A model generated the notes under the pieces. The model ran no database searches, was not told the origin of the DNA, and saw only the letters and a program-made list of their open reading frames with translations. The position numbers were made by a program, and so were the translations under genes. From Candidatus Bathyarchaeia archaeon (lineage in GTDB: Archaea; Thermoproteota; Bathyarchaeia; Bathyarchaeales; Bathycorpusculaceae), in assembly GCA_038873195.1 (NCBI GenBank), contig JAVZEV010000001.1, positions 1,144,490 to 1,208,489 of the forward strand: a stretch of DNA of 64,000 bases, given 5' to 3'. Within the stretch, counting starts at the first letter, position 1. Every line of letters begins with the position of its first letter. Below, one piece after another: positions 3,498 to 56,792 of the stretch.

Positions 3498-4250
3498 TTA
3501 AAAAATATCTATTTGGAGACCTTTAACGGTGTATTCGCGTTGCTGGTAAGTCTGAGAGTCGTATCTTCCGCCTGCCTTCCTTATTTTAATTAAGTTTTTG
3601 TCGCCATTTTTTGACAAATCAATAACAACCTGCGTCATGTGTTCAATCATCGCACAAAACTCTTTTGGATGCGCGTTTTTCGCCATTGTCCAATAAGCCA
3701 AAGTTTGATATGCATACAATGCTGGGCAGACATGTCCAAAAAAAGTTTTTACCGCATCTCTTCCCCAGTTGTGTTCCATGAGAGACAAACTGTTGAAAAC
3801 AAGTCGCGTGCCCGGTGTTACAAATTCTCTTTCTATTCTTCCAAAAAAGTGGTGAAATCTGTCTGGGTCTTTTGAGCTTGGGACTTTTCTCATCCATGTG
3901 GGTGCTTTGTCGTAAAAGTCGCTGAAAATGAGTTCGCCTTGTCCTGCCGCTTCTGAGAAACAGTCGAGCACCAATAATCTCTTTTCCCATCCTTCAGGTA
4001 ATTTTTTGGTTAATTGAGCAAGCTGTAACATTAACGCTTGTGGAGGATAAATAAAGTCTAAGTAAATCACTTGGTTTCCTTCAACTATGCCTTGTTTTAT
4101 GAACGCGTAAAGGAATTCTTTGGCGAATGTTCCAGACTCTATTTCCCAAAGAACGTTTTCGCCTAGTATTAAGCCGCCGCCTAAGAGTTTGTCAAGGCTT
4201 TTTATGCCGGTTGAATAGAAGTTTGTTTGTTCATTTTGCATCGGTTGCAC
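3498..4250 (-). CDS. KaiC/RadA-like protein lacking a Walker A motif, 250 aa
   Basis: The N-terminus STGIKSLDKLLGGGL is the typical opening of the archaeal KaiC/RAD55 RecA-like ATPase family. The length (about 240 aa) and later elements also fit: VIYLDF for strand 2, LLVLDCFSE, and TRLVFNSLSL for the strand bearing Walker B. In active members the next element is GxxGxGKT. Here the corresponding stretch reads GENVLWEIESGTFAKEFL and has no GKT/S, so ATP binding by the P-loop looks lost. It lies 136 nt upstream of gltB on the same strand. The GTG start at 4250 has an in-frame ATG three codons later that is equally plausible. Its role is unknown; a regulatory or scaffold role beside nitrogen genes is only a guess. 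Confidence 0.7.
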   Translation of the reverse strand: MQPMQNEQTNFYSTGIKSLDKLLGGGLILGENVLWEIESGTFAKEFLYAFIKQGIVEGNQVIYLDFIYPPQALMLQLAQLTKKLPEGWEKRLLVLDCFSEAAGQGELIFSDFYDKAPTWMRKVPSSKDPDRFHHFFGRIEREFVTPGTRLVFNSLSLMEHNWGRDAVKTFFGHVCPALYAYQTLAYWTMAKNAHPKEFCAMIEHMTQVVIDLSKNGDKNLIKIRKAGGRYDSQTYQQREYTVKGLQIDIF

Positions 4251-4318: not shown

Positions 4319-4343
4319 TGTACACGTGTGTACATGATGGACA
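4319..4343 (+). promoter_or_regulatory. Phased TGTACA boxes upstream of the second glutamate dehydrogenase
   Basis: TGTACA occurs at 4319-4324 and again at 4329-4334, ten bases apart. Together they form a 7-bp inverted repeat, TGTACAC-GT-GTGTACA. A one-mismatch copy, TGGACA, follows at 4338-4343. TGTACA is the box recognised by TrpY in Methanothermobacter, and the same 10-nt phasing is seen at the trpB2 promoter in this window. A weak TATA-like TAATATTT lies at 4344-4351, so the boxes would sit directly upstream of it, a position that suits activation better than repression. Which factor binds is inference. Confidence 0.5.
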
Positions 4344-4399: not shown

Positions 4400-6169
4400 A
4401 TGTTGAATTTAGTAGAACTTTCAGCGCGAGAATTAGGAATGCTAAAACTTATGGCTGACTTTTTCGCTGAAAAACCAGAACTTACAGCTAAAATTGAAAG
4501 TTATACAACAGCCCATTATGCTCTCGTAACTACATACTCTGAAAACTTCGGCATTCCACCAGAGGACGCTTGGAAAGTCTTTGAAGGTCTCCAGAAAAAA
4601 ATCAACGAAGCTGAGTACGTTCATGTTAAAGCACCTGAACCACTAAAGAAGCTACTGCCTTTATCAAGAGACGAACTGAACATGCTGCGCGTTTTGATTG
4701 ATTACTTCTCTGAATCTCCCAAAATGGCACCTGCTGGGTCTTTCGTGACAAACCGTCCTGATGCTCTGGCTGAAGCTTATCATTGGTTCTACGGAAGCAA
4801 CGGTGGCAGTAATGGTGAAGTAGCACGTGAACTTCTCAAAACTTTGGTAGAAAAACTTCAAACAGCTGTATTCATTAACATCGAGACGTTAGCGCCTCCA
4901 GTTGTCGTGCCAAACCCTTACGAAGCCGCCCTTAAACAATTAGACATCGCTGCTCAAAAACTGAACCTAGACCCTGGCATTCACGAAATACTGAAGCATC
5001 CAATGCGCGCTTTCATCGTTAACATTCCAGTAGTCATGGATGACGGCAGCATCCGCGTTTTCACAGGTTACCGTGTACAATACAACGACGCATTGGGACC
5101 AACTAAGGGCGGCATACGATACCACCCTGACCTAACGCTCGACGAGGTCACAGCTTTAGCCGCTTGGATGACTTGGAAAACAGCTGTTACTGGACTACCG
5201 CTTGGTGGTGGAAAAGGCGGAATAAGATGCAACCCTAAGGAAATGTCGAAAGCAGAGCTGGAACGCCTAACAAGAGGATACGCACGCGCAATCTCCAAGT
5301 TCATAGGACCCTTCACTGATGTCCCTGCACCAGACGTTTACACAACCGCAGAAATGATGGCATGGATAATGGACGAATACAGCGAAATTGTAGGCTACCC
5401 AGTCTTTGGCGTAGTAACAGGCAAACCCGTTAATGTCGGCGGTTCACTCGGAAGAAACGAGGCTACATCAAGAGGCGTAATGTACACAGTTATGGAAGCA
5501 GCAAAACATTTAGGCATAAAACTGAAAGGTGCAACAGTAGCAGTGCAGGGCTACGGAAACGTCGGCTATCATGCAGCACGATTGCTTCATGAAATCGGAT
5601 GCAAAATTATCGCAGTTTCTGACTCTAAAGGAGGCATATACAATCCGCAAGGCTTAGACCCAGTGAAAGTGTTAGAGCACAAGGACAAGACGGGTTCTGT
5701 AGTTGACTATCCTGGCAGCCAACTCGTAACGAACGAACAACTGTTGGAAATGGAATGCGACATACTTGTTCCCGCGGCTTTGGAGAACCAAATAACCGAA
5801 AAGAATGCGCCGAACATTAAAGCGAAGATAGTGGCGGAAGGCGCCAACGGCCCAGTAACACCCGAGGCAGACGAAATCCTATATAAGAAAGGAATTTTCG
5901 TAATTCCAGACATTCTGGCAAATTCAGGAGGCGTCATTGTCAGCTATTTTGAGCAAGTGCAAAACCAAATGAATTACTACTGGACAGAAGAAGAAGTGCG
6001 TGCCAAACTTAAAGATACTATAACCAAGGCGTTCAATGATGTTCTCAAAATGTCAACGCAGCATAACGTGAACATGCGAACCGCAGCTTACATGTTAGCC
6101 GTCAAAAGAGTCGCTGATGCTATGATGGCGCGCAAGGGAAAAGCAGTCTCACCAATCGTGTCTAGCTAA
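4400..6169 (+). CDS. gdhA: Glutamate dehydrogenase with duplicated N-terminal module, 589 aa
   Basis: Residues from about 170 to the end are a complete glutamate dehydrogenase: GGIRYHP, PLGGGKGG with the catalytic lysine, APDVYTTAE, VAVQGYGNVG and EGANGPVTPEAD. In front is an extension of about 170 residues not found in ordinary enzymes (about 415-450 aa). It contains two similar helical units: LSARELGMLKLMADFFAEKP at about residue 7 and LSRDELNMLRVLIDYFSESP at about residue 88, each followed by a helix ending in a Val/Lys-rich segment. A Gly/Ser/Asn-rich turn sits in the second unit. ATG at 4400 follows GGAGG at 4384-4388. The core stays highly similar to the 416-aa paralogue 2.7 kb away, so this copy probably arose by duplication plus domain gain. 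The extension could be an allosteric or protein-docking module. Confidence 0.95.
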   Translation: MLNLVELSARELGMLKLMADFFAEKPELTAKIESYTTAHYALVTTYSENFGIPPEDAWKVFEGLQKKINEAEYVHVKAPEPLKKLLPLSRDELNMLRVLIDYFSESPKMAPAGSFVTNRPDALAEAYHWFYGSNGGSNGEVARELLKTLVEKLQTAVFINIETLAPPVVVPNPYEAALKQLDIAAQKLNLDPGIHEILKHPMRAFIVNIPVVMDDGSIRVFTGYRVQYNDALGPTKGGIRYHPDLTLDEVTALAAWMTWKTAVTGLPLGGGKGGIRCNPKEMSKAELERLTRGYARAISKFIGPFTDVPAPDVYTTAEMMAWIMDEYSEIVGYPVFGVVTGKPVNVGGSLGRNEATSRGVMYTVMEAAKHLGIKLKGATVAVQGYGNVGYHAARLLHEIGCKIIAVSDSKGGIYNPQGLDPVKVLEHKDKTGSVVDYPGSQLVTNEQLLEMECDILVPAALENQITEKNAPNIKAKIVAEGANGPVTPEADEILYKKGIFVIPDILANSGGVIVSYFEQVQNQMNYYWTEEEVRAKLKDTITKAFNDVLKMSTQHNVNMRTAAYMLAVKRVADAMMARKGKAVSPIVSS

Positions 6170-51569: not shown

Positions 51570-52073
51570 CTAATACACAGAGACTTTAGCTATGCCATGT
51601 ATCTTTAAAAGCTCTGGAATTAGCTCTCCGGGAATTTTCCTTTCAGCAATTAGAGTTAGTTTTGGTTCGGGCGACAGTTCTGGGTCATCCACGATTGCTT
51701 GTCTAATGCTTAATCCGCTTTTTGCTAGAGTCATGGCTGAATTTGCAAGTATTCCCGGTATTCGCGCGTCAACGGGTGTTATTTCGACAACTCCAAGGTT
51801 CAGGTGTTTAGCAATCTCCTTCAACGAATGTCCCGCAGACCTTAAGCCTTCAAATATTAGTCGAAGTTCGCGGTTTGCATTTATGGCATTCAAGGTTTCG
51901 GCTACTGTGCGTCTGTCTACGCCCGCAACACGTGCTATGCGTACGGGTGGAATTTGGATTTCGTTTAGGTAGATTTTTCTGTTTTTTACGCTTAATCCGT
52001 TTTCTACGAGTACGCGTGCTACTCGGAGCCGTTCTGGATAGTCTTCTAGGTATTTTTTGATGTTGTTCCACAT
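51570..52073 (-). CDS. TrpY-like ACT-domain transcription regulator, 167 aa
   Basis: The N-terminal half has a helix-turn-helix: IPPVRIARVAGVDRRTVAET, then LNAINANRELRLIFEG. The C-terminal half is an ACT-type amino-acid-binding domain (LNLGVVEITPVDARIPGIL, ANSAMTLAKSGLSIRQAIV, PKLTLIAERKIPGELIPELL). This is the family of TrpY, the tryptophan-responsive repressor of Methanothermobacter. It is divergent from trpB2, separated by 111 bp that carry TGTACA boxes, the known TrpY target. The start is ATG 52073 in a short leader. Tryptophan as effector is inferred from family and position. Confidence 0.78.
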   Translation of the reverse strand: MWNNIKKYLEDYPERLRVARVLVENGLSVKNRKIYLNEIQIPPVRIARVAGVDRRTVAETLNAINANRELRLIFEGLRSAGHSLKEIAKHLNLGVVEITPVDARIPGILANSAMTLAKSGLSIRQAIVDDPELSPEPKLTLIAERKIPGELIPELLKIHGIAKVSVY

Positions 52074-52088
52074 GTTGCTGTGCCTTCA

Positions 52089-52170
52089 TGTACATTTTTG
52101 CGGAATAAAGTATAAATATGTTCGTATTATCAGATGTTTACTAATGTACATAAAAGTACTAAAATGTGCA
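52089..52170. promoter_or_regulatory. Divergent trp regulator/trpB2 promoter with phased TGTACA boxes
   Basis: The TATA-like TATAAATA (52111-52118) can serve both directions. On the trpB2 side, TGTACA (52145-52150), AGTACT (52155-52160) and TGTGCA (52165-52170) follow at exact 10-nt spacing, just after the expected start site. On the regulator side, TGTACA (52089-52094) covers its expected start site. This fits repression of trpB2 and autoregulation of the regulator, as known for TrpY. AGGTGA at 52172-52177 is the trpB2 ribosome site. Confidence 0.7.
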
Positions 52171-52184
52171 TAGGTGAAAAATAA

Positions 52185-53558
52185 ATGACGCAAAAAAACG
52201 AACACTTCACACAACTAAACCCCGACGAAATCCCAACATCATGGTACAACATACAAGCCGACCTCCCAGAACCATTATCTCCACCACTAGACCCAACAAC
52301 AATGAAACCCATAAGCCCACAACTACTCGAAAGAATATTCGCAAAAGAACTAATACTCCAAGAAGTCTCAACCGAACGATACGTAAAAATACCGGAAGAA
52401 GTGCGCGAAGCATACCTTAGGCTACCACGTCCAACACCTCTATACAGAGCCAAAAGACTTGAAAACTACTTGAAAACGCCAGCACAAATATACTTTAAAT
52501 GCGAAAACTTCAGCCCCACAGGCAGTCACAAAACCAACACCGCTCTCGCGCAAGCATACTACAACAAAAAACAGGGAATCAAACGATTAGTAACCGAAAC
52601 AGGCGCTGGACAATGGGGAACCGCCTTGGCTTTGTCTTGCACACTTTTCGATTTACAATGCCGCATATACATGGTACGGGCAAGTTACCAGCAAAAACCA
52701 GGAAGAAGAATAATTGCGCAACTTTATGGAGCAGAAATGTTTCCATCACCAAGCGACCAAACAAACTTCGGCAAAAAACTCCTCAAAGAAAACCCAAACC
52801 ATCCCGGAACACTTGGCATAGCCATCAGCGAAGCAATAGAAGACACGGTAACCCACGAGGACACACGCTATTCACTGGGGTCGGTGCTGAACCATGTCCT
52901 CATGCATCAAACCATAATAGGATTGGAAGCCAAGAAACAATTCGAAAAAATAGGCGTATATCCCGACGTGGTTTGCGGCTGCATAGGCGGCGGCTCAAAC
53001 TTCGCGGGCTTCTGCTTTCCATTTATGATGGACAAGCTCAAAGGCAAAACAAACACGGAATTTGTTGCTTGTGAATCAAAAGCAGTTCCACACACAACCA
53101 AAGGCACGTACACATATGATTTTGGCGACACTGCAGAAATGACGCCACTTCTCAAGATGTTAACGTTAGGACACGGATATGCTTGTCCGCCTATTCATGC
53201 GGGTGGTTTAAGGTATCATGGAATGGCACCGTCAATCTCATACTTAATCCACAAGGGGTATATGCGCTCTTACGCTTACAGCCAAACAGAGATTTTCCAA
53301 GCCGCCAAAATACTAGCCCAGACTGAAGGCTTAATTATAGCTCCGGAAACCGCTCACAGCCTAAAATATGTAGTGGACGAAGCCTTAAAATGCAAACAAA
53401 CAGGCGAAAAGAAAATCATCGCAATGAACTACAGCGGACACGGCTTGCTGGACCTTTCAGCGTATGAACAATTCCTCGCTGGAAAACTCGTGGATTATGA
53501 ACCAGAAAAAATTGAAGTCCCGCAAATTCAGCTGCCACAAGGACGGAAAAGCAAGTGA
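52185..53558 (+). CDS. trpB2: Tryptophan synthase beta chain, TrpB2 type, 457 aa
   Basis: PLP enzyme condensing an activated serine with indole. It belongs to the TrpB2 group by its extra N-terminal segment (about 60 residues more than TrpB1) and by its motif set: KCENFSPTGSHKTNTA (PLP lysine K116), TETGAGQWGTALAL and GGGSNFAGFCFP. HAGGLRYHGMAPS follows, and IAMNYSGHGLLDLSAYE near the end. No trpA is nearby. TrpB2 enzymes from archaea have been shown to use O-phosphoserine rather than serine. The stop overlaps by 4 nt the start of a serine-kinase-like gene, which would supply that substrate. Confidence 0.95.
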   Translation: MTQKNEHFTQLNPDEIPTSWYNIQADLPEPLSPPLDPTTMKPISPQLLERIFAKELILQEVSTERYVKIPEEVREAYLRLPRPTPLYRAKRLENYLKTPAQIYFKCENFSPTGSHKTNTALAQAYYNKKQGIKRLVTETGAGQWGTALALSCTLFDLQCRIYMVRASYQQKPGRRIIAQLYGAEMFPSPSDQTNFGKKLLKENPNHPGTLGIAISEAIEDTVTHEDTRYSLGSVLNHVLMHQTIIGLEAKKQFEKIGVYPDVVCGCIGGGSNFAGFCFPFMMDKLKGKTNTEFVACESKAVPHTTKGTYTYDFGDTAEMTPLLKMLTLGHGYACPPIHAGGLRYHGMAPSISYLIHKGYMRSYAYSQTEIFQAAKILAQTEGLIIAPETAHSLKYVVDEALKCKQTGEKKIIAMNYSGHGLLDLSAYEQFLAGKLVDYEPEKIEVPQIQLPQGRKSK

Positions 53559-54196
53559 CATACACCGTCTTAACAGAAAAATCAAATTTGAAAATTGCTT
53601 TATTGCCCATTGATGAATTGAAACCCCACGAGGAAGGTTCGCCAATTTACTTTGAACTGCTTAAACAAGAAATTCTAAAAGACGGTGTACTAAAATATCC
53701 AATAATAGCTGACGAAAAGACACATGTTATTCTTGATGGGATGCATCGATGGCTTGCGCTTAAAAGTTTAGGCTACACGCTTATACCAGTAATACTTGTT
53801 GACGCTTGTAACAATCCAGAAATCCGCGTTGGAAAAAGACGCATCCACCGTTACATATGCAATTCAGACGGCGAAATCCCCATTAAAGAAGTCATCTCAG
53901 CGGGACTCAGCGGACGCCTAATGAAACCACGGTCAACCAGACACTTCTTTCCCTTCTCAAAATTCCAACAAATTAACTATCCACTACACCAATTAAGAAA
54001 AAAAGCCGCTAAAGATGTTTCCGGATACCTTGCGAAAATGACCCAGCAAGAATGCAATTTCGCAATTAAAGAGTGGTTAAAAGAAATAGCGGAAGAGCTA
54101 GAGTTTCTGACAAAAAGAAAAGAAGAAGTAGAAAAAGAAATGGCTGAATTCCTAAACAGAGTCAAAAACCTAAACGGCAATTTTCAAACTTTTTAA
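53555..54196 (+). CDS. serK: SerK-like free serine kinase (ParB fold), 213 aa
   Basis: ParB-like nuclease-fold protein resembling the ADP/ATP-dependent free-serine kinases SerK (Thermococcus) and SbnI. Matching elements: LKPHE (23-26; the Glu equivalent is the catalytic residue in SerK), DGMHRWLALKSLG (61-73) for nucleotide binding, and RSTRHFFPF (126-134) near the product phosphate. There is no DNA-binding helix-turn-helix as in true ParB, and no parA nearby. A C-terminal coiled coil (LEFLTKRKEEVEKEMAEFL) is extra. The GTG start overlaps the trpB2 stop (GTGA), so translation is coupled. It probably makes O-phosphoserine for TrpB2. Enzyme activity is inferred. Confidence 0.7.
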   Translation: MTYTVLTEKSNLKIALLPIDELKPHEEGSPIYFELLKQEILKDGVLKYPIIADEKTHVILDGMHRWLALKSLGYTLIPVILVDACNNPEIRVGKRRIHRYICNSDGEIPIKEVISAGLSGRLMKPRSTRHFFPFSKFQQINYPLHQLRKKAAKDVSGYLAKMTQQECNFAIKEWLKEIAEELEFLTKRKEEVEKEMAEFLNRVKNLNGNFQTF

Positions 54197-55460: not shown

Positions 55461-56792
55461 ATGCAAAAAATCAAAGTTATTATAATGGGCGCGGCTGGAA
55501 GAGACTTCCACAACTTCAACGTCTACTTCAGAAACAACAGCGCCTACGAAGTTGTGGCTTTCACAGCCACGCAAATTCCAGGCATAGAAGGCAGAATATA
55601 CCCTGCAGAACTTGCCGGACCAAACTATCCTAACGGCATACCCATTTATCCAGAAGAAAAGCTTCCCGAACTGGTAAGAAAATATGATGTTGACCAAGTT
55701 GTTTTTGCTTACAGCGATGTGTCACACGAATATGTAATGCATAAAGCGTCGATTGCTCTGGCGAGCGGCGCAGACTTCCGACTGATGGGACCCAAAACCA
55801 CAATGGTCGCGTCAAAGGTTCCCGTGGTTTCCGTGGGCGCTGTGAGAACAGGCTCTGGAAAAAGCCAAACTTCGCGGCAAGCTGCAAAAATTCTAAAGAG
55901 CATGGGTTTAAGAGTTGTAGCGATCAGACATCCAATGCCTTATGGTGATTTGAGAAAACAAGTTTGCCAACGTTTCGCTTCCTACGAAGACTTGGACAAA
56001 CATGAATGCACAATTGAGGAAAGAGAAGAATACGAGCCACACATAGACAATGGCATAATCGTTTACGCTGGAGTTGACTACGAAAAAATACTGCATGAAG
56101 CGGAACAAGAAGCAGACGTCATAGTTTGGGACGGCGGCAACAACGACCTACCATTCTACAAACCAGACTTGCACATAGTCGTGGCTGACCCGCACAGAGC
56201 AGGACACGAACTTACATATCACCCCGGCGAGGCTAACTTGCGAATGGCAGATGTCGTGATAATAAACAAGGTGGACACGGCGAATCCGGAAAATGTTAGG
56301 CAGGTTAAGGAAAACATAAAAATGGTTAACCCGCAAGCTATCATTTTAGATGCGGCTTCGCCGATAACAGCCGACAAACCTGAGCTAATCAAAGGAAAGA
56401 AGGCTTTGGCAGTGGAAGATGGCCCCACGTTGACTCATGGCAACATGCCTTATGGAGCAGCCGCAATCATAGCACAGAAACTTGGAGCAGCTGAAATTGT
56501 CGACCCGAAACCATACGCGGTGGGCTCGATAAAAGAAGCCTACAAGAAATACACGCATTTAGGAGCAATCCTTCCAGCGTTGGGTTACGGTGGAAAGCAA
56601 ATAGCAGAACTCAAAGAAACAATCGACAAAACTCCATGCGATGTTGTCGTGATTGGCACACCGATTGACCTAAGAAGAGTAATGACTATAAACAAGCCGA
56701 CCGTAAGAGTGAAATACGAACTTAAAGTTCTTGGGCCGATTTCGTTAGAACAGATTTTGGCAGAGTTCATTCAAAGGACTGGTAAAAAATGA
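55461..56792 (+). CDS. Cyclic 2,3-diphosphoglycerate synthetase-like P-loop protein, 443 aa
   Basis: Resembles cPGS, which makes the thermolyte cyclic 2,3-diphosphoglycerate in some methanogens, and the related proteins annotated as GTPases in non-methanogens. VIIMGAAGRDFHNFNVYF opens. A Walker A-like GAVRTGSGKSQTSR follows a first domain; VIVWDGGNNDLPFYKPDLH and VVADPHRAGHE follow, and ADVVIINKVDTANPENV resembles a GTPase NKxD. GAGG precedes ATG 55461. It overlaps the cyclophilin-like gene by 4 nt. Whether this organism makes cDPG is not known; a different ATP/GTP-dependent ligase role is possible. Confidence 0.8.
   Translation: MQKIKVIIMGAAGRDFHNFNVYFRNNSAYEVVAFTATQIPGIEGRIYPAELAGPNYPNGIPIYPEEKLPELVRKYDVDQVVFAYSDVSHEYVMHKASIALASGADFRLMGPKTTMVASKVPVVSVGAVRTGSGKSQTSRQAAKILKSMGLRVVAIRHPMPYGDLRKQVCQRFASYEDLDKHECTIEEREEYEPHIDNGIIVYAGVDYEKILHEAEQEADVIVWDGGNNDLPFYKPDLHIVVADPHRAGHELTYHPGEANLRMADVVIINKVDTANPENVRQVKENIKMVNPQAIILDAASPITADKPELIKGKKALAVEDGPTLTHGNMPYGAAAIIAQKLGAAEIVDPKPYAVGSIKEAYKKYTHLGAILPALGYGGKQIAELKETIDKTPCDVVVIGTPIDLRRVMTINKPTVRVKYELKVLGPISLEQILAEFIQRTGKK

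What the first reader, a model, noticed from the sequence alone, without database searches (positions are those of the whole stretch)
52074..52184. Three operator boxes at exact 10-nt phasing in the trpB2/regulator divergent promoter
TGTACA, AGTACT and TGTGCA begin at 52145, 52155 and 52165, and another TGTACA at 52089, around one bidirectional TATAAATA. TGTACA is the known TrpY box, and TrpY is known to control trpB2 in Methanothermobacter. The adjacent 167-aa ACT protein is of the TrpY type. This suggests that TrpY/TGTACA regulation also operates in this TACK-like lineage, with the kinase added to the regulon.
Basis: partly seen in the sequence, partly recalled or inferred. Interest (0 to 1): 0.7.

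Follow-up and report, generated by a model that had tools for sequence, protein, structure and literature searches.

The report
TrpY operator controlling trpB2 and kinase
In an uncultured archaeon (a bathyarchaeote) a tryptophan-type repressor and its phased DNA boxes sit between the repressor gene and a tryptophan-making enzyme gene; relatives show that the same boxes control the whole tryptophan operon, and that a serine-kinase gene joins the enzyme gene exactly in lineages that have lost tryptophan synthase alpha.

Summary
The boxes are real and at the stated positions. Ten-nucleotide phasing is conserved: 22 phased WGYRCW pairs in 27 regulator|trpB2 intergenic regions against 0.07 expected, and 23 against 0.05 in mutually diverged trpB2-side segments. 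On the regulator side the two boxes are locked at -21 and -11 from the TATA element. The regulator passes NCBIfam's TrpY_fam cut-off and models as HTH plus ACT domain. New here: a matrix trained only on the regulator's own operator finds the same phased pair just upstream of the BRE/TATA of trpE in all 16 trp operons examined from relatives (15 individually significant). The operator is therefore the lineage's tryptophan-regulon operator.

The window's genome has lost that operon: no TrpA, TrpB1, TrpC or TrpE. It keeps trpB2 joined by a 4-nt overlap to a compact SerK-like gene. All 13 full-length SerK-like genes in 61 relatives lie directly 3' of trpB2, and all 13 genomes lack TrpA; all 12 same-family genomes with regulator|trpB2 but no full-length SerK keep TrpA.

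Best reading: a TrpY-repressed indole-salvage operon whose kinase supplies O-phosphoserine to TrpB2. DNA binding, ligand and kinase reaction are inferred. TrpY control of trpB2 is known from Methanothermobacter; lineage, regulon remnant and kinase coupling are new.

The parts
51570..52073 (-). TrpY-family regulator, 167 aa: N-terminal HTH region (RIARVAGVDRRTV) and C-terminal ACT domain (about residues 93-167)
   Evidence: NCBIfam NF053754 TrpY_fam 181.5 bits, cut-off 180; AlphaFold2 model pLDDT 90; ACT-domain fold matches; conserved in 37 of 61 relatives
52089..52094 (.). regulator-side operator box 1, TGTACA, at -21 from the conserved GTATAAA; probable autoregulation site
52099..52104 (.). 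regulator-side operator box 2, decayed to TGCGGA here; TGTGCA/TGCGCA/TGTACA in most relatives, exactly 10 nt from box 1
   Evidence: matrix score of 52089-52104 is 18.7, but that stretch is itself among the training sequences
52111..52118 (.). TATAAATA, the shared or overlapping TATA element; conserved next to the regulator even where trpB2 has its own TATA, so it serves the regulator (-) and, in this arrangement, probably trpB2 (+)
   Evidence: and sequence
52145..52150 (.). trpB2-side operator box 1, TGTACA, near or just after the predicted trpB2 start of transcription
52155..52160 (.). trpB2-side operator box 2, AGTACT, +10
52165..52170 (.). trpB2-side operator box 3, TGTGCA, +20
52172..52177 (+). 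Shine-Dalgarno-like AGGTGA before trpB2
   Evidence: sequence
52185..53558 (+). trpB2, stand-alone TrpB2-type tryptophan synthase beta, 457 aa; R343 in AGGLRYHG where TrpB1 has Asp in AGLDYPG
   Evidence: TIGR01415 677.7 bits (cut-off 519), PRK12391 697.8 bits; best solved relatives 6hul, 4qys, 6hte
53555..54196 (+). compact SerK-like ParB-fold kinase, 213 aa, GTG start overlapping the trpB2 stop by 4 nt; H25-E26 (SerK Glu30 position), DGMHRW 61-66, TRH-PF motif 128-134

Best explanation
This is an autoregulated TrpY-type repressor-operator switch of a bathyarchaeote. The ACT domain of the 167-aa regulator senses tryptophan (inferred). The HTH binds TGTACA-like 6-bp palindromes that repeat every 10 nt, one helical turn, so that dimers line up on one face of the DNA (inferred). 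Bound on the regulator side it covers its own start region and abuts the BRE/TATA; bound on the trpB2 side it covers the trpB2 transcription start. Plentiful tryptophan therefore shuts off trpB2 and the kinase gene translated with it (direction of control inferred from Methanothermobacter TrpY). In the ancestor the same operator also controlled the trpE-led operon. In this lineage that operon is lost and trpB2 remains as an indole-salvage enzyme. The recruited SerK-like kinase makes O-phosphoserine, the known co-substrate of TrpB2 enzymes, from free serine (inferred). Shown here: operator conservation and phasing, the shared operator on trpE, the gene linkage, loss of the pathway, and the SerK/TrpA exclusion.
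For: Phasing far above chance in relatives. Regulator-side boxes locked at -21/-11 of the TATA. Regulator divergent from trpB2 across the family, and also where the regulator is only 38-46% identical or where trpB2 belongs to another subfamily at 50-60% identity. Matrix from the regulator side finds the phased pair before trpE in 16 of 16 trp operons, combined p 3e-19; exact pairs in 5 of them, and those 5 are 5 of only 6 phased pairs in 274 kb. Regulator present in 19 of 20 TrpA-positive genomes and 18 of 41 TrpA-negative ones. TrpY_fam above cut-off. Own genome lacks TrpB1, TrpA, TrpC and TrpE-type proteins. SerK-like gene adjacent to trpB2 in 13 of 13 genomes and exclusive with TrpA. SerK catalytic Glu, DGxHR and TRH-PF motifs kept. 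TrpB2 uses O-phosphoserine (Busch 2014, cited in PMC11917138).
Against: No binding, ligand or expression data. The TrpY homologue of Thermococcus kodakarensis, 42% identical to the Methanothermobacter one, does not bind or control the trp promoter (PMC6737238), so the family name alone proves nothing. 24 of 57 divergent regions have no strict phased pair. The second regulator-side box is decayed in the window. The SerK-like protein is far below the SerK equivalog cut-off (46.9 against 380) and lacks about 110 residues of SerK's middle. Genomes are related, so p-values from pooled sequences overstate independence. No indole source has been identified.
Confidence: 0.8

Rival explanations
1. The regulator and boxes are as described but the effector is serine or O-phosphoserine (or another amino acid), so the switch senses the co-substrate rather than tryptophan.
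For: ACT-domain fold matches include serine-binding phosphoglycerate dehydrogenase; the downstream kinase acts on serine (inferred).
Against: The same operator lies before trpE in 16 of 16 TrpA-positive relatives, none of which has a full-length kinase gene; the regulator's presence follows Trp genes.
Confidence: 0.12
2. The regulator activates trpB2/trpE rather than repressing, as Tar does in Thermococcus, binding just upstream of BRE/TATA.
For: On trpE and on the other-subfamily trpB2 promoters the boxes lie immediately upstream of BRE/TATA, a position also used by archaeal activators; in T. kodakarensis the trp regulator is an activator (PMC6737238).
Against: In the window the trpB2-side boxes lie downstream of the TATA over the start region, and the regulator-side boxes lie over the regulator's own start region, both repressor positions; the characterised TrpY is a repressor (PMC6737238).
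Confidence: 0.1
3. The SerK-like gene is in the operon but serves another use of O-phosphoserine (for example cysteine synthesis), its link to trpB2 being incidental.
For: The characterised SerK feeds cysteine synthesis in T. kodakarensis (PMC5120207).
Against: No cysteine synthase above cut-off in this genome; 13 of 13 SerK-like genes directly follow trpB2, also across two trpB2 subfamilies; presence exactly follows loss of TrpA.
Confidence: 0.2
4. The boxes are chance or a by-product of AT-rich promoter sequence.
For: TGTACA by itself is at the chance level in the window.
Against: Shuffle tests and cross-genome conservation.
Confidence: 0.01

Closest known systems
TrpY / TRP-box regulation of trpEGCFBAD and trpB2 in Methanothermobacter thermautotrophicus (Xie and Reeve 2005; Karr et al. 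2008, both known here from citations and from memory; summary in PMC6737238)
   Same: HTH-ACT regulator of one family, TGTACA boxes, overlapping divergent promoters with the regulator's own gene, trp operon and trpB2 as targets
   Different: Class Bathyarchaeia rather than a euryarchaeal methanogen; regulator divergent from trpB2 rather than from trpE; boxes in strict 10-nt arrays (spacing in Methanothermobacter not compared here); trp operon lost in this genome; a kinase gene added
TrpY homologue TK1227 of Thermococcus kodakarensis (PMC6737238)
   Same: Same protein family
   Different: Shown not to bind or control the trp promoter there; here the operator is shared with trp genes
Tar (TK0271), activator of aromatic amino-acid operons in Thermococcales (PMC6737238)
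   Same: Regulates trp-type operons in archaea
   Different: A different regulator, acting as activator
SerK, ADP-dependent free-serine kinase of Thermococcus (PMC5120207), and SbnI of Staphylococcus
   Same: ParB-type fold, catalytic Glu, DGxHR motif, C-terminal TRH-PF motif
   Different: 213 aa, without about 110 residues of SerK's middle; coupled to trpB2 rather than to cysteine or siderophore synthesis; below the SerK equivalog cut-off
Stand-alone TrpB2 with O-phosphoserine as substrate (Busch et al. 2014, cited in PMC11917138)
   Same: TrpB2 family, AGGLRYHG motif
   Different: Overlapping gene for a predicted phosphoserine-making kinase, in a genome with no TrpA or TrpB1

Membership tests
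TrpY family of transcription regulators | Scores above the NCBIfam TrpY_fam cut-off over full length | tested here: met
   181.5 bits against 180, residues 2-164 of 167 on model 1-163; narrow margin
TrpY family of transcription regulators | HTH plus ACT domain | tested here: met
TrpY family of transcription regulators | TGTACA TRP boxes in the overlapping promoter with its own gene | tested here: met
TrpY family of transcription regulators | Control of trp operon and/or trpB2 | tested here: inconclusive
   supported by shared operator only: trpB2 and trpE of relatives; no regulation measured
TrpY family of transcription regulators | Binds tryptophan and represses | not testable with these tools
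   needs binding and transcription assays
TrpB2 tryptophan synthase beta | Scores above TIGR01415/PRK12391 cut-offs, not above TrpB1 (TIGR00263) | tested here: met
   677.7 and 697.8 bits above cut-off; 159.9 below 392 for TrpB1
TrpB2 tryptophan synthase beta | Uses O-phosphoserine with indole | not testable with these tools
   property of studied TrpB2 enzymes (PMC11917138); R343 replaces the TrpB1 Asp
SerK free-serine kinase (NF053625 equivalog) | Scores above the equivalog cut-off | tested here: not met
   46.9 bits against 380; only residues 13-86 align
SerK free-serine kinase (NF053625 equivalog) | ParB-type fold with catalytic Glu30, DGxHR and C-terminal TRH motif | tested here: met
   E26, D61-R65, T128-H130 invariant or nearly so in 12 relatives and aligned with 5x0b, 5x0j; top fold matches SerK/SbnI
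SerK free-serine kinase (NF053625 equivalog) | Phosphorylates free serine | not testable with these tools
   enzyme assay needed

The most novel reading that the evidence does not exclude
When bathyarchaeal lineages lose TrpA and the de novo tryptophan pathway, they keep the TrpY regulon shrunk to its trpB2 branch and recruit a new, compact serine kinase. The two genes then form an indole-salvage operon (serine to phosphoserine; phosphoserine plus indole to tryptophan), a phosphoserine-linked kinase-synthase pair that I found no description of.
Probability: 0.6. Interest if true: 0.72.

Novelty: new variant of a known kind. Interest (0 to 1): 0.6.

Why it matters
A 2019 study reported that almost no Crenarchaeota genomes carry TrpY homologues and raised the possibility of a third regulator there (PMC6737238); here TrpY-family proteins occur in 157 of 398 sampled genomes of this phylum (108 above cut-off), with a defined operator on trp genes in Bathyarchaeia. 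The work gives uncultured Bathyarchaeia a complete predicted transcription switch (regulator, operator, targets). It also links TrpB2's phosphoserine dependence to a dedicated kinase and to the loss of TrpA, which makes the role of stand-alone TrpB2 testable with three proteins.

Tried and rejected
Pfam gave only a weak HTH hit for the regulator and nothing for the kinase. phmmer found no solved relative of the regulator. sigma-70 type promoter and terminator scans at the locus were near chance level and do not apply to archaea. TrpY-family members elsewhere in the phylum mostly do not sit beside trpB2 and mostly lack TGTACA arrays upstream, so the operator claim is limited to Bathyarchaeia-type members. 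The second trpB2 of this genome (L033) has no box upstream. Best single 16-mer matches elsewhere in the genome are mostly inside reading frames, so no further regulon member is claimed. The original TrpY papers (2005, 2008) are not in the held library; what I recall of them is marked as memory.

Full report
Observation. The sequence between the regulator (ATG ends at 52073, minus strand) and trpB2 (ATG at 52185) carries TGTACA at 52089, TATAAATA at 52111, and TGTACA, AGTACT and TGTGCA at 52145, 52155 and 52165, as stated. TGTACA alone is at the chance level in the window. The phased array is not: no shuffle in 20,000 of this region gave a triple at 10 and 20 nt. In the whole 1.63-Mb genome only ten places match WGYRCW-N4-WGYRCW, two of them from this triple. 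The others lie inside reading frames except one upstream of a glutamate dehydrogenase gene at window 4319.

Conservation. Of 61 genomes searched (own, same genus, family and order), 37 have the regulator. In most of them it is divergent from trpB2, also where the regulator is only 38-46% identical (L066-L070). In many family members the trpB2 at that place belongs to a different subfamily, only 50-60% identical to the window's. The pairing is thus regulator with trpB2 of either kind, which argues for function. Most named relatives are MAGs labelled Bathyarchaeota/Bathyarchaeia, with a few from nearby or vaguely named groups.

Phasing. In 27 divergent intergenic regions, WGYRCW boxes number 69 (16 expected) and 22 pairs lie exactly 10 nt apart (0.07 expected, 2 at most in 2000 shuffles); no other spacing has more than 5. 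The named set of 57 regions, which overlaps the first, gives 40 pairs at 10 nt, no other spacing above 6. Taking only trpB2-side segments that are mutually diverged leaves 23 pairs against 0.05 expected. On the regulator side the two boxes are locked at -21 and -11 from the conserved GTATAAATA; in the window the second has decayed to TGCGGA. The array therefore has two operators, one per promoter. The trpB2-side sequence turns over while the 10-nt rule stays.

Link to tryptophan. A weight matrix was trained only on the 39 distinct regulator-side 16-mers (consensus TGTACATTTTTGTGCA) and applied to 150 bp upstream of trpE in the 16 relatives whose TrpA-carrying locus held a trpE. In all 16 the best site is a phased pair directly before the BRE/TATA, for example TGTACATTTTTGTACT-GAAAAGCCTTAAATAA. 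In the 274 kb of these loci there are six strict phased pairs and five stand before trpE. The regulator is found in 19 of 20 TrpA-positive genomes but in 18 of 41 TrpA-negative ones. The operator is therefore the tryptophan-regulon operator of these archaea.

Regulator. It scores 181.5 against a cut-off of 180 for NCBIfam TrpY_fam. The AlphaFold2 model (pLDDT 90) has an N-terminal HTH region and a C-terminal ACT domain; fold matches are ACT domains of IlvN and of serine-binding phosphoglycerate dehydrogenase. From memory of Karr et al. 2008, TrpY repression of trpB2 needs assembly on the DNA that is disturbed by insertions in the regulatory region and by the G149R change. The strict helical phasing here would fit that, and residue 149 of this protein is a glycine; I could not check the paper.

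What the operon does. trpB2 is a clear TrpB2, nearest to solved TrpB2 structures 6hul, 4qys and 6hte. It has Arg343 in AGGLRYHG where TrpB1 proteins have Asp in AGLDYPG. TrpB2 enzymes use O-phosphoserine (Busch 2014, cited in PMC11917138). The genome (98% complete) has no TrpA, no TrpB1, no IGP synthase and no chorismate-binding TrpE-type protein above cut-off, while all four searches ring in all 14 control genomes. So tryptophan cannot be made de novo by the usual route and trpB2 most likely salvages indole. The next gene starts at 53555 and overlaps the trpB2 stop codon. It aligns with SerK and SbnI over the ParB-type core and again over a C-terminal TRH-PF motif. It keeps the glutamate mutated in the E30Q SerK structures (E26), and its model has SerK and SbnI as the best nine fold matches. 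It is far below the SerK equivalog cut-off and shorter, so I call it SerK-like and not SerK.

Linkage and exclusion. In 61 genomes there are 13 full-length SerK-like genes; every one lies directly 3' of a trpB2, and none of the 13 genomes has TrpA above cut-off. The 12 same-family genomes with regulator|trpB2 but without a full-length SerK-like gene all have TrpA (Fisher p 7e-7, not corrected for relatedness). Two genomes of another family (G037, G051) have regulator|trpB2 with neither. Genus g8 holds both states: G008 has TrpA and no full-length kinase gene, G036 has the kinase and no TrpA. The simplest account is that loss of TrpA, and with it the indole supply, went together with recruiting a phosphoserine source. 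No cysteine synthase is above cut-off in the window's genome, which weakens a role for the kinase in cysteine synthesis.

Mechanism. Shown: anatomy, conservation, shared operator, linkage, pathway loss. Inferred: binding by the adjacent regulator, cooperative loading at one-turn spacing, tryptophan as effector, repression, serine kinase activity, flow of phosphoserine to TrpB2. Open: where the indole comes from, and why the kinase is needed rather than phosphoserine from the phosphorylated serine route.

Verdict. Observation confirmed, interpretation supported and extended. TrpY control of trpB2 is known in kind. New are its demonstration by shared operators in Bathyarchaeia, the regulon shrunk to its salvage branch, and the kinase coupling.

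Noticed in passing
window 4319-4334: TGTACACGTGTGTACA, the only other intergenic phased pair in the genome, between a divergent KaiC-like gene (3498-4250, -) and a glutamate dehydrogenase gene (4400-6169, +). It may be the site of another regulator. Eight of the window's 11 TGTACA lie within 2.7-8.1 kb (about 1 expected).
   Followed up: partly
L033 (genome C1:1259107-1260159): A second, different TrpB2 (about 432 aa) in the same genome, beside a FEN1-like gene, with no phased box upstream.
   Followed up: partly
L047, L049-L051, L053-L057, L059: In TrpA-positive relatives the regulator-linked trpB2 is usually of another subfamily and is followed by an ATP-NAD kinase-like gene (GFIVNPVAGMGGAVGL), then the DegT-type aminotransferase also found here.
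   Followed up: no
L088, L094-L096, L101-L103, L106, L107: In a distant family (f20) of the phylum a TrpY-family gene has trpB2 about 1.9 kb away on the opposite strand beyond its 3' end, without TGTACA arrays; a conserved TGTATAATTATGATCAT-like motif lies upstream instead, possibly a different operator.
   Followed up: no
L040/L208 (G023): A SerK-like gene 36% identical, with an in-frame TGA, sits between the regulator and an other-subfamily trpB2 in a TrpA-positive genome; possibly a decaying kinase gene.
   Followed up: no
window 55461-56792: 443-aa protein with a weak CobW-type match only (Pfam), conserved downstream of the trpB2-kinase operon with the DegT aminotransferase in many relatives.
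   Followed up: no
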